From Bordetella genomosp. 4 (lineage in GTDB: Bacteria; Pseudomonadota; Gammaproteobacteria; Burkholderiales; Burkholderiaceae_B): 64,000 bases of DNA. Below are positions 2,495 to 55,959 of this stretch, one piece after another. A program made the translations under genes and the position numbers. The stretch lies in the NCBI RefSeq assembly GCF_002261185.1, contig NZ_NEVQ01000013.1:496001-560000 (forward strand). Reading direction: 5' to 3'. Position 1 is the stretch's first letter, and the number at the start of each line of letters is the position of its first letter. A model generated the notes under the pieces. The model was not told the DNA's origin. It did no database searches and worked only from the letters and a program-made list of their open reading frames with translations.

Positions 2495-2499
2495 TCCTC

Positions 2500-10597: not shown

Positions 10598-10715
10598 CGT
10601 GGGGGCTGCACCGGCCTTTTGAGCGACGGGCAGTCCGCGAAGCGGACCTCGGCGCCTGGTCTTGCGCCGAGCCGTTGCGATTAGGCCGGTGCGGCCCCCA
10701 CGCACACGGCCCGGA
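10585..10715. repeat. Large imperfect inverted repeat with nested hairpins (cruciform-like)
   Basis: Arms of 33 bases at 10585-10617 and 10683-10715 pair at 30 of 33 positions. The 65-base interior holds a closing stem (GCGACGG / CCGTTGC), a hairpin GTCCGC-GAA-GCGGAC (10633-10647) and a hairpin CTCGGCGC / GCGCCGAG (10648-10671), giving a multi-branched structure. It sits between the porin and the GntR regulator, both on the plus strand, and could terminate transcription or be a dispersed palindromic element. It shares no boxes with the four-copy family at 40497-53322. Confidence 0.75.
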
Positions 10716-10777
10716 CGCCTAAACAGAGACCCCCTCAGCCAGCCCAAACACCCATACCTTCGTGAGCTACCCATGTC

Positions 10778-38498: not shown

Positions 38499-38752
38499 AC
38501 CTTGTCTCCTTCTTTTATGGAATACCGCTGGAACGTGAGGCCTTGTCCTGCAGATAAACAAGGTCGTACATACACAGCGATAGGGGGTTACCCGGGTGTG
38601 AGTCACACCCTTCTCTGTTGTGGTGACAAAGTATAGGTATACCCCCCGGTCAGGACCTATTTAATTTTCTGGAAACCCAGCTTAATGAACCCTGAAGGGT
38701 TATTCTTGCAATCTCGGCCTTTATTCAGTCTCGTTTTCACTATCACACCATC

Positions 38753-39499: not shown

Positions 39500-39514
39500 C
39501 GACAGGAAATTATT

Positions 39515-40372
39515 TTGTTTAGTTATCGACACGCTTTCCATGCCGGCAATCATGCCGACGTGTTAAAGCACGCGCTGCTGGTTCAAATGCTGGATTATCT
39601 GAACCGCAAGGACACCCCCTACTGGGTCATCGACACCCATGCTGGCGCAGGTTTGTATGCGCTCGATGGCGAATGGGCCAACAAGAACGCCGAATTTGCC
39701 GATGGCATCGGCCGCCTGTGGGACCTGAAAGACCTGCCGCCGCTTTTGGAAGACTACGTCGCCCAAGTCCGGCGCTATAACCCTAACGGGCGCTTGCGTC
39801 ATTACCCCGGCTCGCCCTGGCTGACATTGGACGCACTGCGCGACCGCGACCGGTTGCGGCTGTTCGAAATGCATCCGAACGAATCCGGCATCTTGGCCAG
39901 CAATCTCGAGAAACTCGACCGCGTCGCATTACGTCAAACCACTATCTTCGCGGCCGACGGTTTCGAAGGCATGAAATCACTATTGCCCCCGCCCACGCGG
40001 CGTGGAATGGTGCTGATCGATCCCTCATACGAGGACAAACAGGACTACAAACGCACTCTGAACGCCGTCAAGGAAGGCCTCAAGCGTTTTGCCACCGGCA
40101 CCTATGCCGTCTGGTATCCGCTGGTTCAACGGCGCGAGGCTACCGAAATGCCTCGCCACCTCGAAAACCTGCCGATCAAAAACTGGCTGCACGTATCGTT
40201 GACGGTAAAACGACCCGCAGCCGATGGGTTCGGCCTGCATGGCAGCGGCATGTTCATCGTCAACCCGCCCTGGACCTTGCACGCGGCATTGAAAGAAACG
40301 ATGCCCGTCCTGACGAAATTGCTAGCGCAAGACGACCGCGCTACCTACAGCCTGCAGCATCGTACAGACTGA
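39515..40372 (+). CDS. rlmJ: 23S rRNA A2030 N6-methyltransferase RlmJ (TTG start)
   Basis: A 285-residue RNA methyltransferase. 'FSYRHAFHAGNHADVLKHALL' at the start is the RlmJ signature, 'DTHAGAGLYAL' is the SAM motif, and 'GMVLIDPSYEDKQDY' contains the catalytic DPPY-like motif in the form DPSY. 'WYPLVQRREATEM' and 'GMFIVNPPWTL' follow as in E. coli RlmJ (280). The start is TTG 39515, seven bases after AGGAAA; no ATG or GTG fits because F-S-Y begins the family. It lies 15 bases after ugpQ, so they are probably one operon. Confidence 0.92.
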   Translation: MFSYRHAFHAGNHADVLKHALLVQMLDYLNRKDTPYWVIDTHAGAGLYALDGEWANKNAEFADGIGRLWDLKDLPPLLEDYVAQVRRYNPNGRLRHYPGSPWLTLDALRDRDRLRLFEMHPNESGILASNLEKLDRVALRQTTIFAADGFEGMKSLLPPPTRRGMVLIDPSYEDKQDYKRTLNAVKEGLKRFATGTYAVWYPLVQRREATEMPRHLENLPIKNWLHVSLTVKRPAADGFGLHGSGMFIVNPPWTLHAALKETMPVLTKLLAQDDRATYSLQHRTD

Positions 40373-40496
40373 TAAACCGTCTGGCAGTCCGCAGCCTCTC
40401 CTCATACGATTGACTCGTCGCAGCGTGCGGCACCCGCGTTCACCGATTGGCTAGTTGGTGCTGAATAGTCGTGGGGAGGGTGGCGTGCTTATGGAC
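40373..40496. other. Gap after rlmJ, nothing recognised
   Basis: The 124 bases between the rlmJ stop and the outer arm of repeat copy A contain no ORF and no clear T-tailed terminator; copy A itself may end the transcript. Confidence 0.5.
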
Positions 40497-40845
40497 GTCG
40501 AGCCGAGGCAATCGGGCCGTGAGGGCTTCACAAAGCCGGTCCGGCGCGCGGGCGCCGGACACCGTGTTCGCTCACCTCGTCCGCGCCTTCGCGCTTCCTT
40601 CGGTATCCGCTCCACTCGGCTTTGAGGCGCCCTCACGGCCCGATTGCCTCGGCTCGACTCGCAGTAATTCAAGCTCATCACATCGCTGGCACGGCTGTCT
40701 TGCTTGGCGTTTTTCTGTGACCGTGTTGGCAAAGAGGAAGATCTTGCAGGGCTGCTATTCGCGCGTGCCCTGCACACGCGCGAATAGCGATCGGTCCGGG
40801 CATGCGGCGGGGTGGCGTGGTGCCAAGTTGGAAGATCTGCTTGGC
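40497..40845 (-). repeat. Structured intergenic repeat, copy A
   Basis: Read on the minus strand, the order is: box GCCAAGCAGATCTTCCAA (40845 end), GCATGCCCGGACCGAT, a 14-bp stem GCTATTCGCGCGTG (40754-40767 with 40775-40788), GCAAGATCTTC, GAAAAACGCCAAGCAAGA, GTGCCAGCGATG. Then comes a 29-bp perfect outer stem (40497-40525 with 40630-40658) enclosing CAAAGCC/GGCTTTG, a small GCGC hairpin, the box CGAGGTGAGCGAACACGG and the hairpin of GTCCGGCGC / GCGCCGGAC type. Short ORFs inside it are not genes. It faces copy B across about 120 bases. Confidence 0.88.
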
Positions 40846-40964
40846 TAGAGTTGATGCATGCGACGATGATACGTAGAACGTACGACGAGATGTAGAGCAT
40901 GACGCATGTGGCGCATCCGACGATGCGTAGTAAGTCTCTATGTGTCACGACGCCCTAGCTCGAG

Positions 40965-41307
40965 AGATCTTCTGTTCATCTCCGATGCCAAAGCCTTCGC
41001 ATGCAGATCACGCACGCTATTCATGGCCGCGCCCGTAGGCGGCCATGAATAGCAGCCCTGCAAGATCTTCATCCTTGCAAAAGCCAGTTCCTACGAAGCC
41101 TACGTAGACCACCCGTGCCAGCGACGAGGGAATCAGAGATACTGCGAGTCGAGGCGGGGCAGTGACCGTGTTGGCGCGCCTCGTGGCCGAGCGAGTGGAT
41201 ACCGTAGGGAGCGCGCAGGCGCGGACGAGGTGAACGAAGCGGTGTCGGACGCGCAGGCGGCCGACCAGCCACGTGAAGCGCCAACACGGTCACTGCCCCG
41301 CCTCGAC
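40965..41307 (+). repeat. Structured intergenic repeat, copy B (most diverged)
   Basis: Same order as copy A but on the plus strand: AGATCTTC, GCATGC, a 15-bp perfect stem GCTATTCATGGCCGC (41016-41030 with 41039-41053), GCAAGATCTTC, CCGTGCCAGCGA. Then a 29-bp perfect outer stem (41148-41176 with 41279-41307) of almost wholly different sequence from copy A encloses GAGTGGATACCGTAGG, a GCGC hairpin, and CGAGGTGAACGAA. The left boxes are partly eroded. Together A and B fill the convergent rlmJ-dsbB gap (40373-41341). Confidence 0.82.
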
Positions 41308-41341
41308 GTCCAATAGCACTCGATCCCCCCGTCCTGCGCGA

Positions 41342-41806
41342 TTACCTCCGCAACATCCCCCACAAACTCGCCAACAACAACAAAACAAACAAACTCAAAC
41401 TCCAGAGCGCATACTCCACCCCGAGCACTTCCACCATGGCATCCATGCAACTGGCATAAATCCCAAACAGCCAAGGCACCGCCCCATCCAACCCCGACGC
41501 ACTCATGAACTGATCCGCAAACGTCTGATCGCAAGAAAACATATGCGCCGCCACATCATATTGATACCAAGCCGCAGCAATCCCGCCGACGCTCAATAAG
41601 GCCGCCAACCCCGCGCACAACCGAGCCAGCACCCGCACATTGGCACCGATCAAAGCAATCACGCCGATAGTCAGATAGATCAAGCGCTGCAACACACACC
41701 ATGCGCAAGGCGGCATGTCATACACATGCTGCGACACCAGGGCAACGCCCAACGCACCAAAGCAGAGAATGGCGATCAGCCATAACAGGCGACGAGAAGA
41801 TTGCAT
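41342..41806 (-). CDS. dsbB: Disulfide bond formation protein DsbB
   Basis: A 154-residue, four-helix inner-membrane quinone reductase that reoxidises DsbA. The first redox pair is in 'DMPPCAWCVLQR' (C-x-x-C, residues about 34-37, with the conserved following Gln-Arg), and the second pair is in 'MFSCDQTF' and 'IYASCMDAM'. ATG 41806 gives the normal length; the longer frame adds 54 residues from the terminator region behind purF. It lies behind the purF terminator and so has its own promoter or is read by leakage. Confidence 0.92.
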   Translation of the reverse strand: MQSSRRLLWLIAILCFGALGVALVSQHVYDMPPCAWCVLQRLIYLTIGVIALIGANVRVLARLCAGLAALLSVGGIAAAWYQYDVAAHMFSCDQTFADQFMSASGLDGAVPWLFGIYASCMDAMVEVLGVEYALWSLSLFVLLLLASLWGMLRR

Positions 41807-41822
41807 GTAATGTGCACCGAGG

Positions 41823-41860
41823 TAAAAAATATGATGCCGGGCCATACCACAGCCCGGCAT
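41823..41860 (-). terminator. Rho-independent terminator after purF
   Basis: On the minus strand ATGCCGGGC-(9 nt)-GCCCGGCAT is followed by CATATTTTTT. It lies 35 bases after the purF stop and ends the folC-dedD-cvpA-purF transcript; dsbB begins 17 bases further. Confidence 0.9.
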
Positions 41861-41894
41861 CGTTACAGAAAGGAAAGACCGATCATGCGCCGTA

Positions 41895-43418
41895 TCAGGC
41901 GTCGTTCGACGAATATCCCATGTTGAACTGCAGCCCGCCGGTAGACTCATCGCCACCTGGGTCGCCACGCGATTGGCCCAGGCGCTCGAGGTATTCCGCC
42001 GTAATATCGCCGGTCACGTACTGACCGTCAAAGCACGACGACTCAAAACGCGTCAGAGCCGGATTGATATCCGTGACCGCGCGCTGCATATCGCTGAGGT
42101 CTTGATAGATCAACCCGTCAGCACCGATCGTACGCGCGATTTCCTCGTCAGAACGGCCGGTGGCGATCAACTCGCTCTGCGTAGGCATATCGATGCCATA
42201 CACGTTGGGGAAGCGCACTGGAGGCGCAGCAGAGGCGAAGTAGACCTTGTTTGCGCCAGCGGCACGCGCCATATCGACGATTTCGCGGCTGGTCGTGCCG
42301 CGCACGATGGAATCATCGACCAGCAGCACGTTTTTGCCCTTGAACTCGCTGCCGATCGCGTTGAGTTTCTGGCGAACAGACTTACGGCGCACCGCCTGGC
42401 CCGGCATGATGAACGTACGGCCCACGTAGCGGTTCTTGATCAGGCCTTCGCGATAATCGAGTCCCAGACGGGCGGCCAACTGCATGGCGGCAGGACGCGA
42501 CGAATCCGGAATCGGCATCACGACGTCGATGTCGCCCAGGCGCATATTGCGCGCGACCTTGTCGGCCAGGTATTCACCCATGCGCAGACGGGCGTCGTAC
42601 ACCGACACGCCATTGATCATCGAATCCGGACGTGCGAAATACACGTATTCGAAAATACACGGAACGAGCTGCGGATTTTCAGCGCATTGGCGGCTGACCA
42701 TGCGGCCGTCCAGATCGACAAAAATCGCCTCGCCCGGCTCGACGTCGCGCACAAACGCAAAACCGCTACCCTCAAGGGCGACCGATTCCGAAGCGACCAT
42801 CCACTCGACGCCCTCATCGGTTTCCTGGCGGCCGATACACAACGGACGAATGCCGTGCGGATCGCGGAATGCCAACATGCCATAGCCGGAAATCTGGGCC
42901 ACGACAGCATAAGCGCCACGCACCCGTTTGTGCACGGCTGCGACAGCGCGAAACAGCGTGTCGTCATTGAGCGACACGCCCGTGGCAGCCGACTGCAGCT
43001 CGTGCGCCAGCACATTGAGCAGCACCTCGGAATCGGAATTCGTATTGATGTGGCGGCGGTCATCGCGATACAGCGACTCGCGCAACTCGCGCCAGTTGGT
43101 CAGATTGCCGTTATGGGCAAAAGTGATGCCGAACGGGGCGTTCACGTAGAACGGCTGCGCTTCTTCTTCGCTGGCGCTGGAGCCCGCCGTGGGGTAGCGC
43201 ACATGACCGATACCGCTGGTACCGGGCAGCGATCGCATGTTGCGGGTGCGGAAAACATCCCGCACCAGGCCGTGGGCCTTGAACATGTTGAAGTGGCTGC
43301 CTTGGGACGACGTCGCAATACCAGCCGCGTCCTGGCCACGATGCTGCAGCAGCAGCAAACCGTCATAGAGCAGCTGGTTGACCGGCCCGCGCCCAATGAC
43401 CCCGATGATTCCACACAT
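41895..43418 (-). CDS. purF: Amidophosphoribosyltransferase
   Basis: The 507-residue enzyme makes 5-phosphoribosylamine from PRPP and glutamine, the first step of purine synthesis. The chain starts '[11 protein letters not shown]', so the catalytic Cys is residue 2 with no propeptide, as in E. coli rather than Bacillus. Glutaminase residues ('[12 protein letters not shown]', 'RYPTAGS', 'AHNGNLTN') are followed by the PRPP-binding '[18 protein letters not shown]'. Length matches E. coli (505). It is the last gene of the folC-dedD-cvpA-purF cluster, 23 bases after cvpA. Confidence 0.96.
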
Positions 43419-43441
43419 GGTGATTTCCCGTTAAACGAAAC

Positions 43442-43930
43442 TTAGTAGGGCAGCCACGTCGCCAATGACGGCGGCAACCACAACTTGATATGCCTGACGG
43501 CCTCGGTGGCCGAATGCGAAAACATGGCGTTTTGCCACCAGGGCTCTTGCGGCAACGGCGTATAGCCGCCCAACGCCACCAATATCAACACAAACAACAA
43601 ACCTCGCGCCAAGCCGAACACGGCGCCCAGGCCATGATCTGCCGGCGACAAGCCGGTCGTACGGATCAGGGCAGCCAACGTCATATTGAGCAGCCCTACC
43701 CCTAGCAACACCAAAATAAACACCGCTGCGTACGCAATACCCATACGCAGCATCGGAGTCTCTATATAGGGTTCAATCCAGCCATATACAGAGGGCCCCC
43801 ACCAGATCGCTGCCACGAAGGCCAACAGAAACGCCATCAACGACAGGATTTCTTTCAGCAGGCCGCGTACCAACCCCAGCAGACCAGAGGCTGCCAGGAT
43901 GGCCAACACGACGAAATCGAAACCGGTCAC
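43442..43930 (-). CDS. cvpA: CvpA family membrane protein (GTG start)
   Basis: A 162-residue inner-membrane protein with four hydrophobic segments: 'TGFDFVVLAILAASGLLGLVRGLLKEILSLMAFLLAFVAAIWWG' near the N-terminus, then about 60-85 and 100-122. The conserved 'RG(L/F)xKE' follows the first segment. CvpA is needed for colicin V export in E. coli, but its normal role is unsettled. Start GTG 43930 overlaps the TGA of the upstream SPOR gene. Co-transcribed with purF. Confidence 0.92.
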   Translation of the reverse strand: MTGFDFVVLAILAASGLLGLVRGLLKEILSLMAFLLAFVAAIWWGPSVYGWIEPYIETPMLRMGIAYAAVFILVLLGVGLLNMTLAALIRTTGLSPADHGLGAVFGLARGLLFVLILVALGGYTPLPQEPWWQNAMFSHSATEAVRHIKLWLPPSLATWLPY

Positions 43931-44757
43931 TGGCTGGCGATGAAGCCGTTGTCATAACCCAGCGTGCGCAGGCGTGCCTGAGCGGCCTGGGCTGCCTCAC
44001 GCGACGGGAATGGCCCCACGCGCAGGCGGTACGACTGTTTACCTCCAACGGAAGCTTGTTCGACAAAGGCGTTGGTGACGCCGGCCTGGTGCAGCTTGGT
44101 ACGTCGCGACTGGGCATCGGCCTGGGCGCCGTACGAGGCGATCTGCAGGACGAAATTGCCTTTGGCGGCGGGCTTAGGCGCGGCCGGCTTGGGTGCAGCT
44201 GGCGCAGGCGTGTCTGTAGGAGAACGGCCCTCCAGCAGCGCCAACGCCCGCGCACCGTCGTCGTCGCGCGGCTTGGGCGGCGTGACTGGCGGTTTGGTCG
44301 CCGGCGGCTTGGGCGGGGTCACCGCGGCAGGCGGTGTCTCGGGGCGCTGAGCGGTGGCAGGCGGCGGCGTCTCGGGCGGTGTAGAGACGTCGGGCGGCAT
44401 GGGAACGGCCGGCGGCTCTGCGGGAGTCGTCGCAGGCGGTGTGACCGCGGTGCCCTCTGGCGTGGTACCCGTGGCAGCATTGCCCGCGTCGGCCACGGCC
44501 GGTGGCGAAACCTGTGGTTGGTAAGGCGTATTGCGATCCGGCAAACGAATGGGGATATCGTCCGCCACTGGTACGGGCTCGGAGTCCAATACCATCGGCA
44601 GCACGATGACAGCTGCGAGCACCAGCGCGACGGCGCCAGCTAACCGCCGGCGAGCACGCCCACGGAGTTCTGCCGCCTGGGCTTCGCTCGATACCGACGG
44701 ACGCGGTCTAGAGGGCGATGCCTGAGAGGCGGAGTCTTTGCGAGTGAAAAATCCCAT
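43927..44757 (-). CDS. dedD: SPOR-domain protein, DedD-like
   Basis: A 276-residue inner-membrane protein: cytoplasmic residues 1-37, one anchor (about 38-58, 'LAGAVALVLAAVIVLPMVL'), a long Pro/Thr/Ala-rich periplasmic linker (about 70-195) and a C-terminal SPOR domain (about 198-276, 'NFVLQIASYGAQADAQSRRTKL', 'YRLRVGPFPSREAAQAAQARL') that binds denuded glycan at the septum. Gene order folC-dedD-cvpA-purF is the same as in E. coli, supporting the name. The linker is longer than in E. coli DedD (220). Confidence 0.88.
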   Translation of the reverse strand: MGFFTRKDSASQASPSRPRPSVSSEAQAAELRGRARRRLAGAVALVLAAVIVLPMVLDSEPVPVADDIPIRLPDRNTPYQPQVSPPAVADAGNAATGTTPEGTAVTPPATTPAEPPAVPMPPDVSTPPETPPPATAQRPETPPAAVTPPKPPATKPPVTPPKPRDDDGARALALLEGRSPTDTPAPAAPKPAAPKPAAKGNFVLQIASYGAQADAQSRRTKLHQAGVTNAFVEQASVGGKQSYRLRVGPFPSREAAQAAQARLRTLGYDNGFIASQ

Positions 44758-44810
44758 GGGCAGGAATTCCTTGCGACCTGACCGGAGCCTGCGCCCCGAC
44801 TGCCGAAACC

Positions 44811-46118
44811 TTAAATTTTGCGACCCAGTGCCTGCAAAACCGCGGCAACGGTGAGAAACGAGCCAAACACCACGATTCTATCACCCTCGCCTGCCCGTTC
44901 ACGGGCCGCAGCGAACGCTGCCGCGGGGTCGGCGTACGCTTGCACAGTAGGGCCGTCGGAATCAGCCGGAGCCGTCTCGATGGCAGATGAGACGTGCTTG
45001 GCGAGGTCGTCCCCGCTGCCTCCGCGGGGCCCTGGCAACCCTGCGCAATACCAGTGATCGATACGCCCCAGCATCTTGGCCAGCACGCCGTCGACATCTT
45101 TGTCGTTGAGCATGCCGACGACCGCATGGGTGTAGGGATGAAAACCCATGTTATCGAGGTTTTGCGCCAGCACTGCCGCCGCGTGCGGGTTGTGCGCGAC
45201 ATCCAGAATGATGGTGGGTTGACCGGGCAAAATCTGGAATCGGCCCGGCACCGATGCCTGCAACAGACCGATGCGGACGGCTTGCTGGGGCACGGGCAGA
45301 CGGTCGCGCACCGACTCCAGTGCGGCCAGTGCAGCGGACGCATTCAGCAATTGATTTGCGCCCCGCAATGCGGGATAGGCCAATGCATTGCGGCGCTGGC
45401 CGCGGCCGCCATAGGCCCATTGCTGGCGATCGCCGGAATAGTTGAAGTCTTTACCAAACAGCCACAGATCGGCGCCGATCTCTGCGGCGTAGTCCAGCAA
45501 CGATTGTGGCGGCTGCGGATCACTGCATATGGCCGGCCGGCCGTTGCGGTAGATATGGGCCTTTTCCCAGCCGATTTTTTCGCGGGTATCGCCCAGCCAG
45601 TCGGTATGATCCAGATCGACGCTGGTGATGATGGAGCAATCGGCATCAACGATATTGACGGCATCCAGACGCCCCCCGAGACCCACCTCGAGCACGATGG
45701 CATCGAGATTCGACTGCGCAAACAAACGCAAAATTGCCAGCGTGGTGAACTCGAAATAGGTCAGCGTAATCTCGCCGCGTGCCGCTTCGACTGCGGCAAA
45801 CTGCTCGGTCAACGCAGCGTCGCTGGCAATCTCGCCGTTGACCCGGGCGCGTTCATTGAAATCGATCAAGTGCGGCGAGGTGTACAAGCCCACCCGATAG
45901 CCCGCGGCCAGCAAGATGGCCTCGAGCATGGCACAGGTCGAGCCCTTGCCATTGGTGCCGCCGACGACGAACTTCACGCCGTTCAGTTGCAATGCCAGGC
46001 GGTCCGCCACCTGCTTGACCCGGTCCAGCCCCAGATCGATAGCCTTGCTGTGAATGGATTCAAGGTACTGCAGCCACTGAGGCAACGGCGTGGCGGCGTC
46101 TAAACGGGGGGCAGACAT
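44811..46118 (-). CDS. folC: Folylpolyglutamate / dihydrofolate synthase
   Basis: The 435-residue cytoplasmic ligase adds glutamate to dihydropteroate and folates. 'VGGTNGKGSTCAMLEAIL' is the P-loop (about residues 53-70), 'YTSPHLIDFNERARVNGE' the omega loop, 'VDLDHTDWLGDTREKIGWEKAHI' the Mg/ATP site and 'ILDVAHNPHAA' the C-terminal domain signature. Length is normal for the family. It leads the cluster; 53 bases separate it from dedD. Confidence 0.95.
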   Translation of the reverse strand: MSAPRLDAATPLPQWLQYLESIHSKAIDLGLDRVKQVADRLALQLNGVKFVVGGTNGKGSTCAMLEAILLAAGYRVGLYTSPHLIDFNERARVNGEIASDAALTEQFAAVEAARGEITLTYFEFTTLAILRLFAQSNLDAIVLEVGLGGRLDAVNIVDADCSIITSVDLDHTDWLGDTREKIGWEKAHIYRNGRPAICSDPQPPQSLLDYAAEIGADLWLFGKDFNYSGDRQQWAYGGRGQRRNALAYPALRGANQLLNASAALAALESVRDRLPVPQQAVRIGLLQASVPGRFQILPGQPTIILDVAHNPHAAAVLAQNLDNMGFHPYTHAVVGMLNDKDVDGVLAKMLGRIDHWYCAGLPGPRGGSGDDLAKHVSSAIETAPADSDGPTVQAYADPAAAFAAARERAGEGDRIVVFGSFLTVAAVLQALGRKI

Positions 46119-46230
46119 GAAAATATTCGAAAAAGGCGAAGACGCGGCAGTGTAACAGCCGCGTTGGCCTACCGGGGCATAGTCCCTGTTGCCGTTGATG
46201 GATTCGGCGACTGGTCGGCCCAGGCGAAAA

Positions 46231-47193
46231 CTACGCCGCTTGCAGCATCAAATCCAGGTTCTGCACCGCTGCCCCCGAAGCCCCCTTACCCAGGTTATCG
46301 AATACTGCTGTCAAAAGAATCTGGCCATGCTCGGGATTGGAGAAAACAGCAAGCTCCATATTATTGGTGTTATTCAAACGCTGGGGGTCCAGGGCCTGCA
46401 ACGCGGAAGACCCGGCTTGCGGCAACACACGCACGTGTTGCGCACCCGCGTAATGATCGGCAAGGCAGGCGTGCACCGCCTCGGCATCCGCACCCGCGGG
46501 CAACAGCCGTTGTTGTAACGCAATAGTGAGCACGATCCCCTGGCGATAAGACCCGTACGCCGGCACAAAAACCGGCGGCAATGCCAAGCCGGCATAACGT
46601 TGAATCTCCGGGACGTGTTTATGTTGCAGCGGCAAGCCATAGATCTGGAACGCGGGCAGGCTGCTGGACTGTTGGCTGCCGCTGCTCCCTGCTCTGTGCG
46701 GATCGACGCCCTCGTACCGTTCGACAGCCGCGCGCCCGCCGCCGGAATACCCCGACACAGCGTGAATGGCCAGGGGATAGTCAGACGGCAGCAAGCCCGC
46801 CGTCACCAAAGGCGATAGCAGGCCGACAGCGCCCGTAGGATAACAACCCGGATTCGTGACGCGTTTGGACTGCGCAATCAGACGCGATTGATCGGCGCTC
46901 AACTCCGGAAATCCATAGGTCCAGCCATCCTGGACGCGATGGGCCGAACTGGCGTCGATGATGCGCACGTCGGGATTTTTAACCAGCGCCACCGCCTCGC
47001 GCGCCGCCGCGTCGGGCAGGCACAAAATGGCAATATCGCAGGCGTTCAACGCCTCGGCGCGACGTTGCGGGTCCTTGCGATAAGCCGCCGGCAAAGTGTC
47101 AATGACGATATCGCCGCGCCCCTGCAAGCGCGCATGGATCTGCAGGCCCGTCGTGCCTTGGTCGCCGTCGATAAAAACATGAGGGATGGTCAT
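46231..47193 (-). CDS. argC: N-acetyl-gamma-glutamyl-phosphate reductase (type 2)
   Basis: The 320-residue NADPH-dependent enzyme reduces N-acetylglutamyl phosphate in arginine synthesis. '[12 protein letters not shown]' is the nucleotide loop, '[20 protein letters not shown]' the substrate region, and '[12 protein letters not shown]' holds the catalytic Cys (about residue 116). The shorter type-2 form is common in proteobacteria. It is divergent from a LysR gene, with 111 bases between, and does not belong to the folC cluster by any overlap; no other arginine gene is nearby. Confidence 0.93.
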
Positions 47194-47278
47194 CGCAATG
47201 ATCCTGGTGAAAGTTCGATGGCGTTTATCGTGCCTCCGACCGTAGAATTAGAAAAGTTGAATTTAATAATCTATTTAT

Positions 47279-47291
47279 TCAGAAATTCTGA
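47279..47291. promoter_or_regulatory. LysR-type box TCAGA-AAT-TCTGA
   Basis: A perfect 5+5 bp palindrome of the form T-N11-A, 14 bases upstream of the LysR gene ATG in the 111-bp argC-lysR gap. It is suited to autoregulation by the adjacent LysR protein and could also affect argC. Confidence 0.5.
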
Positions 47292-47304
47292 CCTGTGAGG
47301 CATC

Positions 47305-48189
47305 ATGCGGGAAATCAACCTGGATCAGTTGCGCACGCTCGTCACGATTGCTGACCAGGGTTCGTTCGCCAAGGCAGCGGCATTGCTGCACCTGGCGCCG
47401 CCCACGGTCAGCCTGCACATCAGCGAACTGGAGCAGCGCGTAGGCGCACAACTGCTGTCCCGGGCCAAGGGCCATGTACGCCCCACGGCCATTGGCGAGA
47501 GCCTGATCGACCATGCACGAAAGCTGCTGGCGGACGTGACGCATGCGCTGGATGACGTATCACGCCAGGCCCAAGGTCTGGCGGGCCGCGTCCGTCTGGG
47601 AGCGTCCACCGGCGTCATCGCTCATTTACTGCCGCGAGCGCTGGCGTCTTTAGCGCAATCGCATCCAGCCATTGACGTACAAATCGCAGTCCTGACCTCG
47701 CAACAAACCCTTGCGCAATTGAGCGACGGATCGCTCGACATCGGCATCGTCGCCTTGCCCCAGTCCAAGGTTGCAGGCCTGACCATCCAGCCCTGGCGGC
47801 GTGATCCCGTTGTGGCATTCCTGCCAGCGGCCTGGCGTGCACCTGCTCATATCACCCCGCGTTGGATGGCCGAACGGCCGCTCATCCTGAACGACCCCGG
47901 CACCCACCTGTCTCGATTGACCACACAGTGGTTTGCCAAGGTCGGCCTGCGGCCTGTTCCCCGCATCGCGTTGAACTACAACGACGCCATCAAGAGCCTC
48001 GTCGGTGCAGGTTACGGTGGGACATTGCTGCCTCACGAGGCGGGCGCGCCAGCGCCGGATGAACGCATTCTCATGCGGCCATTGCGACCGGCTTTGTGGC
48101 GGCAATTAGGCGTCGCTTATCGCGAGCAACTGAGCGAGCCCGTTACACGGCATATGTTGGCGGCTTTGTGGGATTTACAGCAGCAGTGA
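47305..48189 (+). CDS. LysR-family transcriptional regulator
   Basis: A 294-residue LTTR with N-terminal winged helix ('NLDQLRTLVTIADQGSFAKAAALLHLAPPTVSLHISELEQRVGAQLL', residues about 4-62) and an effector domain with 'LAQLSDGSLDIGIVALPQ'. It is divergent from argC. GTGAGG precedes ATG 47305. Targets may be argC or the downstream cupin cluster, though repeat copy C (48247-48600) lies between it and that cluster. Confidence 0.9.
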   Translation: MREINLDQLRTLVTIADQGSFAKAAALLHLAPPTVSLHISELEQRVGAQLLSRAKGHVRPTAIGESLIDHARKLLADVTHALDDVSRQAQGLAGRVRLGASTGVIAHLLPRALASLAQSHPAIDVQIAVLTSQQTLAQLSDGSLDIGIVALPQSKVAGLTIQPWRRDPVVAFLPAAWRAPAHITPRWMAERPLILNDPGTHLSRLTTQWFAKVGLRPVPRIALNYNDAIKSLVGAGYGGTLLPHEAGAPAPDERILMRPLRPALWRQLGVAYREQLSEPVTRHMLAALWDLQQQ

Positions 48190-48246
48190 AATCCAGTTGT
48201 TTTGCCAGCTAGTGGCCAGACACCATCGCCGCAAGCCTCACTCGCG

Positions 48247-48600
48247 GCCAAGCAGATCTTCCAACCAAGCACCACGCCCCCCCCCCGTAGCATGCCCGGA
48301 CCGATAGCTTGAGGTGGCCGCGCAGGGCGGCCGCCGAAAGCAGCACCGCAAGATCTTCTTCTTTGCCATCGCGGCTGCAGAAAAACGCCAAGCAAGAAAG
48401 TCGTGCCAGCGATGCAGAGAATTCTAATTGCTGCCAGTCGAGCCGAGGCAATCGGCCCGGCCGGGCGCCTCAAAGTCGAGTGGAGCGGACACCGTAGGTA
48501 GGCCCGAACGGGCCGGACGAGGTGAGCGAACACGGTGTCCGGCGCCCGCGCGCCGGACCGGCTTTGTGAAGCCCGGCCGGGCCGATTGCCTCGGCTCGAC
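48247..48600 (+). repeat. Structured intergenic repeat, copy C
   Basis: Plus-strand copy: GCCAAGCAGATCTTCCAA, AGCACCACG followed by a run of ten C, GCATGCCCGGACCGATAG, a stem GGTGGCCGC / GCGGCCGCC (48313-48335), GCAAGATCTTC, AAAAACGCCAAGCAAGA, GTGCCAGCGATG. The 30-bp outer stem is 48437-48466 with 48571-48600, enclosing CAAAGTC/GGCTTTG, GGCCC-GAAC-GGGCC and the GGTGAGCGAACACGG box. It fills the lysR-cupin gap (48190-48719), whose flanks show no other feature. It is about 95% identical by eye to copy D and in the same orientation. Confidence 0.9.
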
Positions 48601-48719
48601 GACCAACAGAACCCTCTCCCCCCGTAAACAAATCATTCCGCTGCCCGGGAAAACCCCCTTGCCCAACATTTCACATCCATGAAATAATTTTCACACTCAT
48701 AAAATTCAACCATCCAATC

Positions 48720-49139
48720 ATGCCCAACCTCCCCACCTGGCTAGTCCGCGAATCCCAAGTCCCCGGCTACCACCCCGCCAACCACACCGGCACCCTCAAC
48801 CGCCGTCTGATCGGCCGAGAAAACGTCGGCGCCAAACACGTAGAAGTCCTATTAGGCGTAATAGAAAAAGGCCAAGGCGCCCTACCCCATGCGCACCCCG
48901 GCATCGAGCAAGTCTGTTATCTGCTAGAAGGCACCGCCCGCGCGCAAGTCGGTGACGAATCCGCCGACATGGTCGCTGGCGACTGCTGCTATTTCCCCCC
49001 GGACATCCCGCACGTTTTCACCGTCACCAGCGACACCCCCGTGCGTTTGCTGGTCATCTACTCGCCGCCCTACGAAGAATCACCAGATCGCGTAATACGC
49101 GGTTTCCCAGCCCCCGCAACGGGAAAAGCGTCCACGTAA
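48720..49139 (+). CDS. Cupin-domain protein
   Basis: A 139-residue single-cupin protein. Motif 1 is 'LPHAHPGIEQVCYLLEGTARAQVG' (H-x-H, E, G), and motif 2 is 'GDCCYFPPDIPHVF' (P-x4-H), giving the usual His/His/Glu/His metal set. Such proteins are isomerases, oxygenases or sensors; the activity cannot be told. It is the first gene of the cluster with a Bug receptor, a CoA transferase and an acyl-CoA dehydrogenase, all on the plus strand. The ATG at 48720 is the only start that keeps the repeat untranslated. Confidence 0.85.
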   Translation: MPNLPTWLVRESQVPGYHPANHTGTLNRRLIGRENVGAKHVEVLLGVIEKGQGALPHAHPGIEQVCYLLEGTARAQVGDESADMVAGDCCYFPPDIPHVFTVTSDTPVRLLVIYSPPYEESPDRVIRGFPAPATGKAST

Positions 49140-49223
49140 TACCCTGCCACCCGGCCCAGCGGCCACGGCCAGCTAAACCGCCATCACAGAGCCGCAGCCA
49201 TCCACCAACCGGAGAGAGACCCC

Positions 49224-50195
49224 ATGTTGTTACGCATCCTACGCGCCGCGGCGCTATGCAGCATCGCACTTGCGTCCGTATTCACGTCCCCCGCCCAAGC
49301 CGCCTATCCTGAAAAACCGATCACGCTGATCGTGCCCTTTCCCGCAGGATCCGGCACCGATGCGGTAGGCCGGATCTTTGCCGCCGAACTAGGCCAGATA
49401 CTGGGTCAACAAGTGATCGTGGAAAACAAACCCGGCGCCAACGCCACCATCGCCGCACAGTACGTCGCACGCGCCAAACCCGACGGCTACACCTTGTTCG
49501 TCACCACGAACACCTCGCATTCCGCCGCACCGTTCCTGATGAAGAACGTCCCCTACGACCCGGTCAAGGATTTCACGCCGATTGCACGTGGCGGCAACTT
49601 GCCATTTCTGTTGGTGGCCAATCCCAAACAGCCCTACACCACGGTAAAGGAACTCATCGACTACGCCCGCAAAAATCCGGGCAAAGTCACCTATGCCAGT
49701 GGCAATAGCACAGGCATCGTCGCAGGCGGCACCCTGGCGCATCGCGCCGGCATCGACATTCTGCATGTGCCTTACAAAGGGACCCCGCAGGCTCTGACCG
49801 ATCTCGTCGGCGGCCAGGTCAACATCATGTTTACTGATCTGGCCTCGGGCCTGCCGTTCGTGCAATCCGGCCAACTGCGCGCATTGGCCGTGTCCACGGC
49901 AGAACGCAGCACCATCGTGCCAGACCTGCCCTCGATGCGTGAGGCCGGCGTGAGCGATTTTGATTTGAACTCATGGAACGGCTATTTCGGCCCGGCGGGG
50001 TTGCCGCCGGAGATCGTGACCAAACTCAATGCCGCCATCAACCAGATCGTCAACAAACCCGACGTGCGTAAACGCTTGGCAGATCTCGGGTTCGACGCGT
50101 TTAGCGGCACACCCGAAAGTTTCGCCGCCTTCGTCAGCGAACAACGCGACCTCTGGGGGAAACTGATTAAAGACGCAGGGATCCAGGCGCAATGA
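49224..50195 (+). CDS. Bug-type tripartite tricarboxylate receptor (TctC family)
   Basis: A 323-residue periplasmic receptor with a Sec signal peptide ending 'TSPAQAA' near residue 27. The mature start 'YPEKPITLIVPFPAGSGTDAVGR' and 'VPYKGTPQALTDLVGGQVNIMFTDL' are the two Bug binding motifs, and 'NVPYDPVKDFTPIARGG' is the usual middle block. GGAGAGAGACCCC precedes ATG 49224. No TctA/TctB permease is near, a common situation for Bug genes. It probably brings in the acid that the neighbouring CoA transferase activates. Confidence 0.92.
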   Translation: MLLRILRAAALCSIALASVFTSPAQAAYPEKPITLIVPFPAGSGTDAVGRIFAAELGQILGQQVIVENKPGANATIAAQYVARAKPDGYTLFVTTNTSHSAAPFLMKNVPYDPVKDFTPIARGGNLPFLLVANPKQPYTTVKELIDYARKNPGKVTYASGNSTGIVAGGTLAHRAGIDILHVPYKGTPQALTDLVGGQVNIMFTDLASGLPFVQSGQLRALAVSTAERSTIVPDLPSMREAGVSDFDLNSWNGYFGPAGLPPEIVTKLNAAINQIVNKPDVRKRLADLGFDAFSGTPESFAAFVSEQRDLWGKLIKDAGIQAQ

Positions 50196-50303
50196 TCGCG
50201 CTGTTTTTACAGAGATATACAGATTGCGCCTCGCCCTCTGCACCTGCATTGATGCGTGTTGACGAAGTGTACGGCGCCAGCAAACCACAGAGATTCGAAC
50301 ACT

Positions 50304-51578
50304 ATGCAGCATGATGACGCACCCGCCCGCAACGGGCCGACATCTGACATTGACGCAGGCTCATCACCTGTGAACACCGGTCCGCTGTCCGGCGTACGCA
50401 TTCTGGATTTGAGCTCAGTCGTCATGGGCCCGTATGCCACGCAGGTATTGGGTGACCTGGGCGCAGACGTGATCAAAGTCGAATCTCCCGCTGGCGACAA
50501 CATGCGGGCCGTCGGCCCGATGCGCAACGCCGGCATGGGACATTTGTACCTGCATTTGAATCGCAATAAACGGTCCATCGTGCTGGACCTGAAAACCGAA
50601 GCGGGCCGCGAAGCGTGTCTAAAGCTGGCAGAGAACTGCGATGCGCTGCTCTACAACATCCGGCCTCAAGCCATGGCGAGACTAGGCCTATCGTACGAGG
50701 CCGTGTCCGCCCGCAACCCGCGCCTGGTCTATATTGGCGCCTATGGTTTCAGCGAGGCCGGCCCCTATGCGGGGCGACCTGCTTATGATGATTTGATCCA
50801 GGGACAAACAGGCATTGCGGATCTGTTTCGCCAACAGAGTGGCGACGTTCCGCGCTATGCGCCATTGACGCTGGCAGATCGCGCCGTTGGCCTGCATGTG
50901 GCCATCGCGCTCGTGTCCGCCGTCCTGCATGCTCGTGCGCAAGGCCAAGGCCAATCGGTTGAAATCCCCATGTTCGAAGGCATGGCCCATATGGTGCTGG
51001 GCGATCACCTGGGCGGCGCGACATTCGAGCCAGCGCTGGGTCCTACCGGCTATGCCCGCCTGCTCGCCGCGCATCGGCGCCCCTACGCAACCGCAGACGG
51101 CTATTTGTGCCTGCTGATTTACAACGACAAGCACTGGCGAAATTTCTTTGCATTAATCGGCCGGTCCGAGTTGGAGCAAGACCCGCGTTTTAGCAGCCAC
51201 ACCGCTCGCGCTCGTCATATTGATGAGGCGTATGCCTTTGTGGCCGAAATCATGCGTACGCGCAGCAGTGCCGAATGGCTCGCAGACCTGACGCAAGCAG
51301 ACATTCCCGCGGCGCACCTTTATTCAGTAGACGATCTGATTCGAGACACACATCTGCAGAGCACGGGTTTTATTCGCGAACTAGACCATCCGACCGAGGG
51401 AAAATTGCGTACGACCGCGCCGCTGGGACGCTACGAGCGCACCCCGACCACCATACGCCGGCCTGCGCCCCGCTTGGGAGAACACAGCCGGGAGATCCTG
51501 CGCGAAGCCGGTTGCACCGATGCCGAGATTGACGCACTGATTGCCGCGCGAGCCACGCAGGAAGCCAGACGTACGTGA
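50304..51578 (+). CDS. CaiB/BaiF family CoA transferase (class III)
   Basis: A 424-residue enzyme that moves CoA between acids through a protein-bound acyl intermediate. Landmarks: 'GVRILDLSSVVMGPYATQVLGDLGADVIKVESPAGD', the catalytic Asp in 'AYDDLIQGQTG', 'GQGQSVEIPMFEGM' and 'AAHRRPYATADGYL'. Family length is 390-440. ATG 50304 is used; a 16-codon longer frame begins in the gap. With the following acyl-CoA dehydrogenase it suggests activation and oxidation of the solute bound by the Bug receptor. Confidence 0.92.
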   Translation: MQHDDAPARNGPTSDIDAGSSPVNTGPLSGVRILDLSSVVMGPYATQVLGDLGADVIKVESPAGDNMRAVGPMRNAGMGHLYLHLNRNKRSIVLDLKTEAGREACLKLAENCDALLYNIRPQAMARLGLSYEAVSARNPRLVYIGAYGFSEAGPYAGRPAYDDLIQGQTGIADLFRQQSGDVPRYAPLTLADRAVGLHVAIALVSAVLHARAQGQGQSVEIPMFEGMAHMVLGDHLGGATFEPALGPTGYARLLAAHRRPYATADGYLCLLIYNDKHWRNFFALIGRSELEQDPRFSSHTARARHIDEAYAFVAEIMRTRSSAEWLADLTQADIPAAHLYSVDDLIRDTHLQSTGFIRELDHPTEGKLRTTAPLGRYERTPTTIRRPAPRLGEHSREILREAGCTDAEIDALIAARATQEARRT

Positions 51579-51674
51579 GGGTTATCGACGACCTGCTTCA
51601 GAAAACGTGGCACCAGAAAGACACACACCGCGCCGCCATACTCGGGCGTCGCGGGCCGACAGAGGAACTTCGAC

Positions 51675-52841
51675 ATGGACTTTGAATTTTCATCCGATCA
51701 ACTGGCGTTGCGCGATGCAATTGAACGCGTGTGCGAGCGCTATTCCAATGAATACTGGCTCGAACGAGATCGCGACGGCGGTTTTCCCCATGACTTTCAT
51801 GCTGATCTGGCACGCGATGGCTGGTTAGGCATTGCCATGCCGCAAGCGTATGGCGGCGCCGGATTGGGCATGACAGAAGCCGCGCTGATGATGCAAACCA
51901 TCGCCGCCTCAGGCGCGGGTTTTGCCGGCGCATCAGCCGTGCATATGAATATCTTTGGCTTGAATCCGGTAGTCGTATTTGGCAGCGACGAACAGCGCCA
52001 GCGCTGGCTCGAACCGTTGATTGCTGGCCGCGAAAAGGCCTGCTTTGCTGTCACCGAGCCCGATGCAGGCCTGGACACCACCAAACTTTCCACGCGAGCA
52101 GAACGTCATGGCGACGAGTACATTGTCCATGGCCGCAAAATCTGGATCTCGACCGCACAAGTCGCTCACAAGATGTTGCTGCTGGCCCGCACCACGCCGC
52201 TGGCCGACGTCGCCAAACCCACCCAGGGCCTGTCGCTGTTCTACACCGACCTGGACCGCAGCAAAATCGAAGTCCGCGAAATCGACAAAATGGGCCGCAA
52301 AGCCGTCGACTCCAACATGTTGTTCATCGACGGCCTGCGCATCCCCGTCGCAGACCGCATCGGTGAAGAAGGCCGAGGCTTTGAATACATTTTGCACGGC
52401 CTGAACCCCGAACGTATCCTCATCGCCGCCGAAGCCGTCGGCATAGGCCGCGCCGCCCTCGATCGAGCCGTGCAGTATGCGGGCGAACGCACCGTATTCG
52501 GACGCCCCATCGGACAGAACCAAGGTATTCAACATCCCTTGGCCCAAGCATGGATGCAATTGGAAGCAGCCAATCTAATGGTCTTCAAAGCAGCCAGCAT
52601 GTACGACGCCGGCTTGGCCTGCGGCCCCTACGCCAATACGGCCAAGTATCTCTCTGCAGAGGCGGGACATAATGCCTGCCAGACAGCCGTACTCACCCTG
52701 GGTGGCATGGGCTATGCCAAGGAATACCACGTTGAACGTTTATTGCGGGAGAGCTATATCCCGCGCATTGCACCGGTCAGCCCGCAATTGATCATGTGCT
52801 TCATAGCGGAGAAGGTGCTGGGTTTGCCAAAGTCTTATTGA
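51675..52841 (+). CDS. Acyl-CoA dehydrogenase family protein
   Basis: A 388-residue FAD enzyme. Signatures: 'GYGGAGLGMTEAALMMQTIA'-type N-terminal helices, 'CFAVTEPDAGLDTTKLSTRAE' (FAD/substrate loop), 'GRKIWISTAQVAHKMLLLART', and 'GQNQGIQHPLAQAWMQLEAANL'. The C-terminal position where short- and medium-chain enzymes carry their catalytic Glu reads 'RIAPVSPQLIM', so that Glu is missing. A Glu in 'LNPERILIAAEAVG' lies where isovaleryl-CoA dehydrogenase has its base. The reaction probably forms an alpha,beta-unsaturated acyl-CoA. It is last in the cupin-Bug-CoA transferase cluster and followed by repeat copy D. Confidence 0.9.
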   Translation: MDFEFSSDQLALRDAIERVCERYSNEYWLERDRDGGFPHDFHADLARDGWLGIAMPQAYGGAGLGMTEAALMMQTIAASGAGFAGASAVHMNIFGLNPVVVFGSDEQRQRWLEPLIAGREKACFAVTEPDAGLDTTKLSTRAERHGDEYIVHGRKIWISTAQVAHKMLLLARTTPLADVAKPTQGLSLFYTDLDRSKIEVREIDKMGRKAVDSNMLFIDGLRIPVADRIGEEGRGFEYILHGLNPERILIAAEAVGIGRAALDRAVQYAGERTVFGRPIGQNQGIQHPLAQAWMQLEAANLMVFKAASMYDAGLACGPYANTAKYLSAEAGHNACQTAVLTLGGMGYAKEYHVERLLRESYIPRIAPVSPQLIMCFIAEKVLGLPKSY

Positions 52842-52969
52842 ATCGGCGTGGAGAGACTATTGGTGTTGAAGATTAGAGAGTACTGACGGACCTCCTGCGA
52901 GGCGCAGGCATGCAATCAACGAGTCTCCAAAGAGACCCTCCCCGCATCATCGTCGCAAGCCTCAACGCA

Positions 52970-53322
52970 GCCAAACAGATCTTCCAACCAGGCACCACGC
53001 CCCCCCCTCCCGCATGCCCGGACCGATAGCTTGAGGTGGCCGCGCAGGGCGGCCGCCGAAAGCAGCACCGCAAGATCTTTCTCTCTACCATTGCGGCGGC
53101 AAAAAAACGCCAAGCAAGAAAGTCGTGCCAGCGATGCAGAGAATTCTAATTGCTGCCAGTCGAGCCGAGGCAATCGGCCCGGCCGGGCGCCTCAAAGTCG
53201 AGTGGAGCGGACACCGTAGGTAGGCCCGAACGGGCCGGACGAGGTGAGCGAACACGGTGTCCGGCGCCCGCGCGCCGGACCGACTTTGTAAAGCCCGGCC
53301 GGGCCGATTGCCTCGGCTCGAC
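52970..53322 (+). repeat. Structured intergenic repeat, copy D
   Basis: Nearly identical to copy C and in the same orientation; outer stem 53159-53188 with 53293-53322 (30 bp). The distance from copy C is 4722-4724 bp with only one or two small indels, at the C-run (eight here, ten in C) and near the left end. The inner pair here is CAAAGTC/GACTTTG, fully complementary, whereas copy C has a G-T pair. It lies between convergent acyl-CoA dehydrogenase and IclR genes; the 128 bases before it (52842-52969) hold nothing recognisable. Confidence 0.9.
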
Positions 53323-53355
53323 GACCAATAGAACCCCTCACCGCAAGCAAAAACC

Positions 53356-54090
53356 CTATCCCTGCTCCAACCCCGTACAAGCCGCCCTCAATATCCGAGC
53401 ACACTCCTCCTGCCGAGGCTCCAGCCGATAAACCGGCCCCCCCACAGAAATCGCATACGTCTCCCCCGACAATGTCACAGGCCAAGCCAGTGCGCAAACG
53501 TCGGAAATCGACTCACCGAGATTCATGAACCACCCCCGCTGCCGAGACAATTCGAGGTCGGCATCAACGGCCTCGATGGAGGTCAAGGTACGCTCGTTAT
53601 AGCGAGTCAAAGAATAGCTATTGAGCAACGCATGCCGAGCCTTCGTATCCAGGACAGACAGCAACGCCTTGCCTAAAGAGTTCGCATGCACCTCGCGAAA
53701 CTCGCCCGCTACCGGGGCATAGCGAATGGTATGCGGAGAATCCAGCACATCCAGATAGACAACCTTGCCGTCTCCGCTGAGCTTGCCGAACACAATCGTT
53801 TCCTGCGTCGCATCGCGCAGTTCGACCAAGCTGGGATAAACACGGTCCAGGACCGGATCAGACGCGGCGATGCGTTGCGCCATCGCCAGCAGCCGACCCG
53901 TAGGGTAATAACCCTGCCGACGTCCTGTCTCGTACAAATAGCCGAGATCGGCCAACGTACGAATCAGCGCCAGACAGCTCGAAACCGGCACGCCCAATAG
54001 GCGCGCCAGCTCCGACAAGGGCAACGCGCGCCGCTCGCGAGCATAGGTTTCTATGATCTCGATGACGCGCAGCGCTGTCTTGACGCTCAT
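53356..54090 (-). CDS. IclR-family transcriptional regulator
   Basis: A 244-residue regulator: winged helix at residues about 5-65 ('SLSELARLLGVPVSSCLALIRTLADLGYL'-like region) and the IclR effector domain after it ('ETIVFGKLSGDGKVVYLDVLDSPHTIRY', 'HANSLGKALLSVLD', 'GWFMNLGESISDVCALAWPV'). It is convergent with the acyl-CoA dehydrogenase cluster, which such regulators often control, but it starts only 30 bases after the lpdA stop on the same strand, so read-through from the pyruvate dehydrogenase operon is possible. The target is not established. Confidence 0.88.
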   Translation of the reverse strand: MSVKTALRVIEIIETYARERRALPLSELARLLGVPVSSCLALIRTLADLGYLYETGRRQGYYPTGRLLAMAQRIAASDPVLDRVYPSLVELRDATQETIVFGKLSGDGKVVYLDVLDSPHTIRYAPVAGEFREVHANSLGKALLSVLDTKARHALLNSYSLTRYNERTLTSIEAVDADLELSRQRGWFMNLGESISDVCALAWPVTLSGETYAISVGGPVYRLEPRQEECARILRAACTGLEQG

Positions 54091-54120
54091 GGGCTGGGCA
54101 AACAGGCGTTCACGAAAGGA

Positions 54121-55950: not shown

Positions 55951-55959
55951 GAGGCCTCC

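What the first reader, a model, noticed from the sequence alone, without database searches (positions are those of the whole stretch)
40497..53322. Four-copy family of ~350-bp structured intergenic elements
Copies at 40497-40845 (minus), 40965-41307, 48247-48600 and 52970-53322 (plus) share the same order of short boxes (AGATCTTC, GCATGC, GCAAGATCTTC, GTGCCAGCGA, GAGTGGA...ACCG, CGAGGTGANCGAA) and the same three stem-loops, within 343-354 bp. They contain no credible gene and no transposase. I do not recognise the family. Options: a non-autonomous mobile element, a chromosome-organising site, or a structured transcript end.
Basis: seen in the sequence. Interest (0 to 1): 0.82.

Follow-up and report, generated by a model that had tools for sequence, protein, structure and literature searches.

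The report
Paired giant hairpin elements between genes
The four repeats are real members of a large, so far uncharacterised family of highly structured elements that mostly come as back-to-back pairs between genes reading towards each other in Bordetella-like bacteria, and the way they have changed over time suggests that the cell uses their folded RNA.

Summary
The four copies belong to a family with at least 72 complete 3' domains in this genome. The natural unit is a divergent pair of ~350-nt halves, 750-870 bp here: 40497-40845(-) with 40965-41307(+) is one; the other two copies are single halves. Each half ends in a ~30-bp near-perfect stem of free sequence, a fixed internal loop and a three-way junction with conserved purine-rich bases. 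In 32 aligned copies 98.1% of 1804 cells pair and 41 of 57 pairs have changed on both sides. Stem mismatches read outward are G.U more than A.C (62 v 15), which points to RNA. 30 of 35 scorable units in this genome lie between convergent genes (background 12 of 134), stems about 45 bp past stop codons. Found in 34 of 200 genomes sampled from the family; the only 3 positives among 300 order genomes lie in that family. No Rfam match over its gathering score; no dedicated transposase found. The window pair looks like a gain; other copies persist at the same site in related species with compensatory changes. Best reading: an amplifying element whose RNA structure is kept, probably as a two-way barrier at gene ends. 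No promoter or transcript was shown.

The parts
40497..41307 (.). complete unit: divergent pair of halves around a 119-bp spacer, between the RlmJ-type gene (39515-40372 +) and the DsbB-type gene (41342-41845 -)
40497..40845 (-). half A (reads outward, to the left)
40965..41307 (+). half B (reads outward, to the right)
40846..40964 (.). spacer between the two halves; no sigma-70-like promoter found in 40300-41500
40497..40658 (-). terminal 3' domain of half A: 30-bp outer stem, GCCTC/GTGAA internal loop, three-way junction
41148..41307 (+). terminal 3' domain of half B, outer stem of different sequence from half A
48247..48600 (+). single half C, between a LysR-type gene (47305-48189 +) and a gene on the same strand (48720-49139 +); the two genes to its right also lie to the right of a unit in G007 (L041)
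48437..48600 (+). terminal 3' domain of C
52970..53322 (+). single half D, between convergent acyl-CoA dehydrogenase-type (51675-52841 +) and IclR-type (53356-54090 -) genes; remnants of the family at the same site in G002 and G003
53159..53322 (+). terminal 3' domain of D

Best explanation
A family of interspersed elements of Alcaligenaceae-type bacteria whose full unit is two structured modules of ~350 nt set back to back. SHOWN: the divergent pairing, the shared fold with compensatory change, the location between convergent genes, the restriction to one family in the genomes sampled, an apparent gain of a whole unit at one site and long retention at others. INFERRED: the conserved form is the RNA of the outward strand; the unit acts in cis as a two-way barrier and 3'-end structure where two transcription units collide, a role like that suggested for REP/BIME elements but with a recognised RNA fold; and it spreads by a copying process that needs an unidentified enzyme in trans. 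Certainty: structured paired family about 0.97; outward RNA as the selected form about 0.6; the cis role at convergent gene ends about 0.45.
For: Pairing: 98.1% of 1804 cells standard, 41 of 57 pairs changed on both sides, covariation score 0.498 against 0.149 shuffled and 0.042-0.091 for slid pairings. Variable helices but conserved unpaired purine-rich bases in 101 distinct 3' domains outside the own genome. Outward-strand mismatches G.U 62 v A.C 15 in 117 distinct stems (p 6e-8; a looser first count gave 111 v 37), and 30 v 11 in 98 distinct 5' hairpins. Neighbouring halves divergent in 56 of 56 cases (55 of 55 without L133, whose second hit is a spacer palindrome). 30 of 35 scorable own units between convergent genes v 12 of 134 background gene pairs; 121 of 145 stems face a stop codon. 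Same-site retention: G002/G003 halves whose closest relative is the half at the same site (L126/L135 90%, L127/L137 82 and 85%, L128/L133 82%), with 12 pair-to-pair double changes in five same-site comparisons. Gain: same gene pair 80-129 bp apart in 7 relatives.
Against: No sigma-70-like promoter enrichment upstream of the halves on the outward strand (1 of 58 own, 0 of 90 others; shuffles 3.1 and 2.4), and no U-run after the outer stem in the own copies, so it is not an ordinary terminator or an obvious ncRNA gene. Of 10 single halves between tandem genes, 7 point the stem at the downstream gene's start, which a 3'-end role does not predict. Outside the own genome only 34 of 52 scorable units are convergent. 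Convergent gaps are also where inserts do least harm (argument made for REPs in PMC1525189, passages read). The same-site stems also show 15 one-sided changes beside the 12 double ones, and 5 of the 12 are transversions, as DNA-level palindrome correction would also give. No transcript data.
Confidence: 0.45

Rival explanations
1. Selfish non-autonomous mobile element (large MITE): the fold is the transposition substrate, and units survive mainly between convergent genes because inserts there are harmless.
For: A whole pair 92% identical to the window pair inside the genome and a near-closed site in 7 relatives; copy number uneven, 72 complete 3' domains here against 3-29 matches in each of the 8 other genus genomes; the closest relative of a half is in the same genome for 56 of 56 own halves tested.
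Against: No transposase inside except apparent later IS insertions in 2 units; no Y1_Tnp in 10 of 16 carriers incl. the own genome, no reverse transcriptase in 8 of 16 (other transposase families not searched); no target duplication recognised by eye; old copies at fixed sites keep their stems with 12 double changes.
Confidence: 0.25
2. Two divergent genes for a trans-acting structured ncRNA present in many copies.
For: Covarying fold with conserved unpaired bases; G.U over A.C on the outward strand; divergent order.
Against: No promoter signal; no terminator-like U-run in own copies; the strong tie to convergent gene ends is not expected of a trans-acting RNA gene; copy number varies widely.
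Confidence: 0.12
3. DNA-level element: cruciform or protein-bound palindrome acting on supercoiling or chromosome structure, with stems kept by templated (quasi-palindrome) correction rather than RNA selection.
For: 56 of 117 distinct stems perfect over 24 bp; 5 of 12 same-site double changes are transversions; six parS-like sites in and around one set of halves; REP-like setting.
Against: G.U v A.C asymmetry in both the stem and the 5' hairpin on the same strand; fixed mismatched internal loop and junction bases that correction would erase; a covarying 4-bp helix probably too short for such correction (inference).
Confidence: 0.13

Closest known systems
REP / BIME elements (paired inverted REPs)
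   Same: intergenic, palindromic, many copies, inverted pairs (recalled for BIMEs), frequent between convergent genes, targets of IS110 and IS256 family insertions (PMC1525189, passages read; here one insertion of each in unit spacers)
   Different: a half is ~350 nt against 20-40 bp (abstract of PMC3733652 as listed); three-way junction with conserved unpaired bases; no Y1_Tnp/RAYT-type gene in the own genome nor in 10 of 16 element-bearing genomes
Bor-2 of Bordetella bronchiseptica (PMC2267715; table rows read as passages)
   Same: 167-bp model, 17 members (6 full length), intergenic, predicted structured; the 3' domain here is mostly ~160-175 nt with 3-29 matches in each other genus genome
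ERIC / NEMIS / RUP-type bacterial MITEs (recalled)
   Same: short non-coding inverted-repeat elements that can fold as RNA, no gene
   Different: single palindrome, not a divergent pair of complex folds; terminal repeats with target duplications were not recognised here

Membership tests
REP/BIME | 20-40 bp palindrome with GTAG or CGTC tag | tested here: not met
   halves of ~350 nt; the GTAG-like bases in the junction are GWAG and vary
REP/BIME | RAYT (Y1_Tnp) in the genome | tested here: not met
   none in the own genome; present in 6 of 16 element-bearing genomes
REP/BIME | inverted pairs, often between convergent genes | tested here: met
   56 of 56 neighbouring halves divergent, 55 of 55 without doubtful L133; 30 of 35 own and 34 of 52 other scorable units convergent
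MITE (remnant of an insertion sequence) | terminal inverted repeats shared with an autonomous element in the genome | tested here: inconclusive
   no autonomous version among the units read; transposase genes inside 2 units look like later insertions; the genome was searched only for Y1_Tnp and RVT_1
MITE | target-site duplication / clean empty site | tested here: inconclusive
   site nearly closed in 7 relatives but flanks too diverged to place a duplication
Known structured RNA family (Rfam 15) | covariance-model match over the gathering score | tested here: not met
   none to the element at E<=1 in window 38000-56000; in 4 relatives' loci only matches far below gathering scores to eukaryotic miRNA models and one to BTH_s1 (21 bits, gathering 74)
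Intrinsic terminator | GC-rich stem followed at once by a U-run | tested here: not met
   no U-run after the outer stem in the own copies aligned; scan of 40300-41500 found one chance-level site outside the unit; not scanned in relatives
Bor-2 | sequence match to the published model | not testable with these tools

The most novel reading that the evidence does not exclude
A new class of bacterial structured RNA, made in divergent pairs from the gap between convergent genes, whose fold (long free-sequence stem, fixed internal loop, purine-rich three-way junction) binds a dedicated protein or RNA polymerase to stop or insulate colliding transcription, and which spreads as a domesticated mobile unit through a whole bacterial family.
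Probability: 0.3. Interest if true: 0.82.

Novelty: new variant of a known kind. Interest (0 to 1): 0.66.

Why it matters
It is a large and elaborately folded interspersed bacterial element with strong covariation, yet nothing in Rfam 15 matched it over a gathering score. Copies that stay at the same site in different species, and a species with dozens of similar copies, give a natural test of what intergenic palindromes at convergent gene ends do, a long-open question for REPs. It also breaks assemblies: many contig ends here lie in or beside it.

Tried and rejected
Known RNA family: Rfam at a permissive threshold gave nothing on the element in the window part and only matches far below gathering in relatives. 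IS200/IS605 or RAYT-driven: no Y1_Tnp in the own genome, absent from 10 of 16 carriers. Retroelement: RVT_1 absent from 8 of 16 carriers, though the own genome has one match. Phage or plasmid origin: no match to copy C by distant blastn, none in viral contigs by one exact pattern that fits only some copies. Autonomous version: the long units were followed up; L140 and L165 carry an IS110- and an IS256-family (Transposase_mut) gene in the spacer, L130 carries tandem copies of the 5' hairpin region, L116 a parS-like cluster; none repeats, so they read as later or separate events. Sigma-70 promoters: none above shuffles. Loop-to-downstream pseudoknot GCAGGG/CCCTGC: seen in some copies, not kept when the loop changes (by eye). 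The D site first looked like a recent insertion from match distances, but the alignment showed family remnants in G002 and G003 at the same place, so that reading was dropped. Literature: searches showed no description beyond the Bor repeats (PMC1590033 and PMC2267715, passages seen; PMC3733652, one passage; PMC12306157, term search found none of these taxa; PMC1525189, passages); subscription papers and supplements were not searched, so a prior description is not excluded.

Limits of the counts: the gene finder is home-made and its background comes from the same loci. The 37 own units are those I chose away from contig ends; the 55 others lie in loci I fetched. The hit lists behind searches were copied by hand; reverse-strand hits of the same palindrome and weak extra hits (under 50 bits) in the spacers of L118, L132 and L137 were left out, and the second hit of L133 was kept though it is a spacer palindrome; four of the 56 neighbouring sets have 1.5-1.9 kb between the halves. 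One search scored at most 13 candidates per genome with strict filters, so 34 of 200 is a lower bound; one search scored 150 per genome and its match counts include reverse strands. In one search five partial or different hits were left out, as were stems with fewer than 17 Watson-Crick pairs of 22 and stems identical to one already counted. In one search four of 108 rows were dropped and identical rows merged to 101. Alignment A2 left out G013 copies (longer 3' domain).

The odds did not change.
Full report
WHAT WAS CLAIMED AND WHAT IS THERE. All four are at the stated coordinates and strands and align end to end. blastn with copy C in the own genome (G000, 5,526,746 bases in 23 contigs; the window is C16:496001-560000) gives many full-length copies, best non-self E 3e-164. 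A profile scan of the first loci showed that most copies come in twos: a minus half, a spacer of 65-173 bp, a plus half, 750-870 bp in all. The window's first two copies are such a pair; C and D are single halves. In the loci examined, 56 of 56 neighbouring halves within 2.5 kb are in minus-plus, that is divergent, order; one of these, L133, is doubtful because its second hit is a palindrome of the spacer, and four sets have 1.5-1.9 kb between the halves. As scored: 21 pairs and 16 single halves in own loci, 35 pairs (34 without L133) and 20 single halves in others.

ANATOMY. Each half in the own genome, read outward from the spacer, has an AGATCTTC box, a 5' hairpin of ~15 bp with loop variants such as GCAGG or GCCCGTAG, a stretch like GGCCCTGCAAGATCTTC, a linker (GTGCCAGCGA and related), and a 3' domain of ~160-175 nt. 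The 3' domain is a ~30-bp outer stem, an internal loop GCCTC/GTGAA, a 7-bp stem, and a three-way junction with two hairpins, one of them on a 4-bp covarying helix (CACC/GGTG, CGTC/GACG, GCT/AGC, AACC/GGTT). In G013 (another genus) the domain is ~200 nt with an enlarged hairpin; short forms of ~121 nt occur in G002 and G003. Past the stem a short tail is shared in the own genome (CCAATAGNAC and similar).

THE FOLD IS CONSERVED, THE STEM SEQUENCE IS NOT. On 32 copies from three genomes (A2: 23 from G000, 9 from G006 and G007), 98.1% of 1804 cells form standard pairs; 41 of 57 pairs have changes on both sides; covariation score 0.498 against a shuffled mean of 0.149 and 0.042-0.091 for slid pairings. 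The structure was written from one of these sequences, which favours the unslid pairing. Weak spots: the outermost pair of the 4-bp helix (13 of 32 unpaired), the closing pair of one hairpin (11 of 30 unpaired) and one pair of the other (5 of 32). Across 101 distinct 3' domains outside the own genome, stem columns mostly show no majority base while unpaired junction bases are conserved (CGagCgAGcnG, cGaAGGnag, GGACGAg, gRCGanGcG).

RNA OR DNA. In a double-stranded palindrome G.T and A.C mismatches are the same event seen from two strands and should be equal; an RNA tolerates G.U. Over the outer 24 bp of 117 distinct stems, read outward, G.U was 62 and A.C 15 (p 6e-8), with 45 other mismatches and 56 stems perfect; a looser first count gave 111 and 37. 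The 5' hairpins give 30 against 11 in 98, though those stems were picked for pairing. The bias was counted on each half's own outward strand, so one single-stranded DNA copy of a whole unit would not explain it. A strand-biased mutation rate could, but a bias of that sign would itself suggest outward transcription (inference). Against the RNA reading: no sigma-70-like promoter signal near the halves on the outward strand (1 of 58 own, 0 of 90 others; shuffles 3.1 and 2.4; none in 40300-41500), no U-run in the own copies, and no transcript data.

WHERE IT SITS. By a codon-usage gene finder trained on the window, 30 of 35 scorable own units lie between convergent genes, 4 tandem, 1 divergent, with 2 more at contig edges unscored; adjacent gene pairs in the same loci without an element are convergent in 12 of 134 (Fisher p 1.4e-18). 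In other genomes 34 of 52 scorable units are convergent, 17 tandem, 1 divergent, 3 unscored. Of 145 stems with a neighbour, 121 face a stop codon, median distance 48 bp (own, 49) and 41.5 bp (others, 72). But of 10 single halves in tandem contexts, 7 point the stem at the downstream start.

DISTRIBUTION. Model R1 finds the family in 9 of 9 genus genomes: 72 complete 3' domains in G000 (my count of listed rows at E<=2e-29) and 3-29 matches in each of the 8 others, reverse-strand matches included. In the family 34 of 200 genomes and 12 of 43 genera matched (strict filters). In 300 genomes of the order 3 matched, all of the same family. The one stretch that an exact pattern found in the named genome collection is from Bordetella sp. 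02P26C-1, apparently the G007 locus (same matches); Bordetella is placed in Alcaligenaceae. G002 has the length that I recall for B. petrii DSM 12804, a label from memory. No phage, plasmid or viral-contig match.

GAIN AND RETENTION. The A/B pair lies between rlmJ-type and dsbB-type genes, 969 bp apart here. In seven relatives with both genes side by side the blast matches are 80-129 bp apart, and in G002 the end of the left gene lies 60 bp from the right one although the rest of that gene matches elsewhere. In five of the seven the stops are 9-24 bases apart, read by eye. So the pair was gained here, or lost in all of them. A unit at C6:288290-289147 is 92% identical over the whole 856 bp. 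Other copies are old. G002 and G003 hold halves whose best match is the half beside the same gene (89.9, 82.3, 85.0 and 82.0%). Behind thiC (Pfam) members lie in G000, G002, G003, G006 and, in another genus, G215; between hemB- and dsbD-type genes in G000, G010, G041 and G051, four genera. At most of these wider distances a half is closest to halves of its own genome or of a third one, so repeated arrival or gene conversion is not excluded. The two genes right of half C also lie right of a G007 unit (L041). In five same-site comparisons the outer stems show 12 pair-to-pair double changes, 5 of them transversions, beside 15 one-sided changes: 6 from a pair to a mismatch or G.U, 8 the other way, 1 between mismatches. 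At the D site G003 holds a degenerate unit and G002 a fragment, while the space is 34-81 bp in G001, G005, G006 and G007.

MECHANISM. The reading that uses most of this: an element that spreads as a pair, lodges where two genes run into each other, and once there is kept as a folded structure. As the flanking genes point inward, an outward RNA would run antisense into their ends; alternatively the cell reads the structure only when transcription crosses the gap. Either way the natural role is a two-way end or barrier for colliding transcription. The rival that it is only a tolerated selfish element explains the place and the amplification but less well the upkeep of old single-site copies. DNA-level palindrome correction explains near-perfect stems but not the G.U asymmetry or the fixed mismatched loop.

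KNOWN OR NEW. It works like a giant BIME but fails the membership tests for REP (size, tags, RAYT). PMC2267715 lists Bor-2 in B. bronchiseptica: 167 bp, 17 members, 6 full length, intergenic, structured; size and number suggest the 3' domain of this family, which I could not check. No paper seen in the searches named above describes the paired unit.

Noticed in passing
window 10477-10722: Three ~41-bp tandem repeats followed by a different long palindrome (10582-10718) that reads as a second intergenic hairpin element; R1 matches it weakly on both strands (49 and 30 bits).
   Followed up: partly
window 44967-45018 (-): Sub-threshold match to the Guanidine-II (mini-ykkC) riboswitch, 24.5 bits against a gathering score of 32.
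   Followed up: no
L116 (G000:C21:101000-108200), 2360-3656: Six parS-like sites TGTTTCACGTGRAACA (up to one mismatch; the name is recalled); four lie between two divergent halves of the family 1.9 kb apart; none in the 199 other sequences held at the time.
   Followed up: partly
L140 1362-2345 and L165 3006-4199: IS110-family and Transposase_mut (IS256-type) genes inserted in unit spacers, as reported for REP elements.
   Followed up: partly
L130 (G002) 915-2692: Unit whose spacer holds several tandem copies, roughly 340 bp each, of the 5' hairpin region plus a GGTGTCNGGCACC-type palindrome also seen in spacers of G003.
   Followed up: no
outer stems, 117 distinct, all genomes sampled: The first arm of the outer stem is strongly G- and T-rich (G 1558, C 640, T 447, A 163 of 2808 bases); no explanation.
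   Followed up: no
G000 contigs C1, C2, C3, C4, C8, C9, C10, C11, C12, C14, C15, C17, C21: Contig ends fall in or beside copies of the family, so the assembly is broken by it and copy number is probably underestimated.
   Followed up: no
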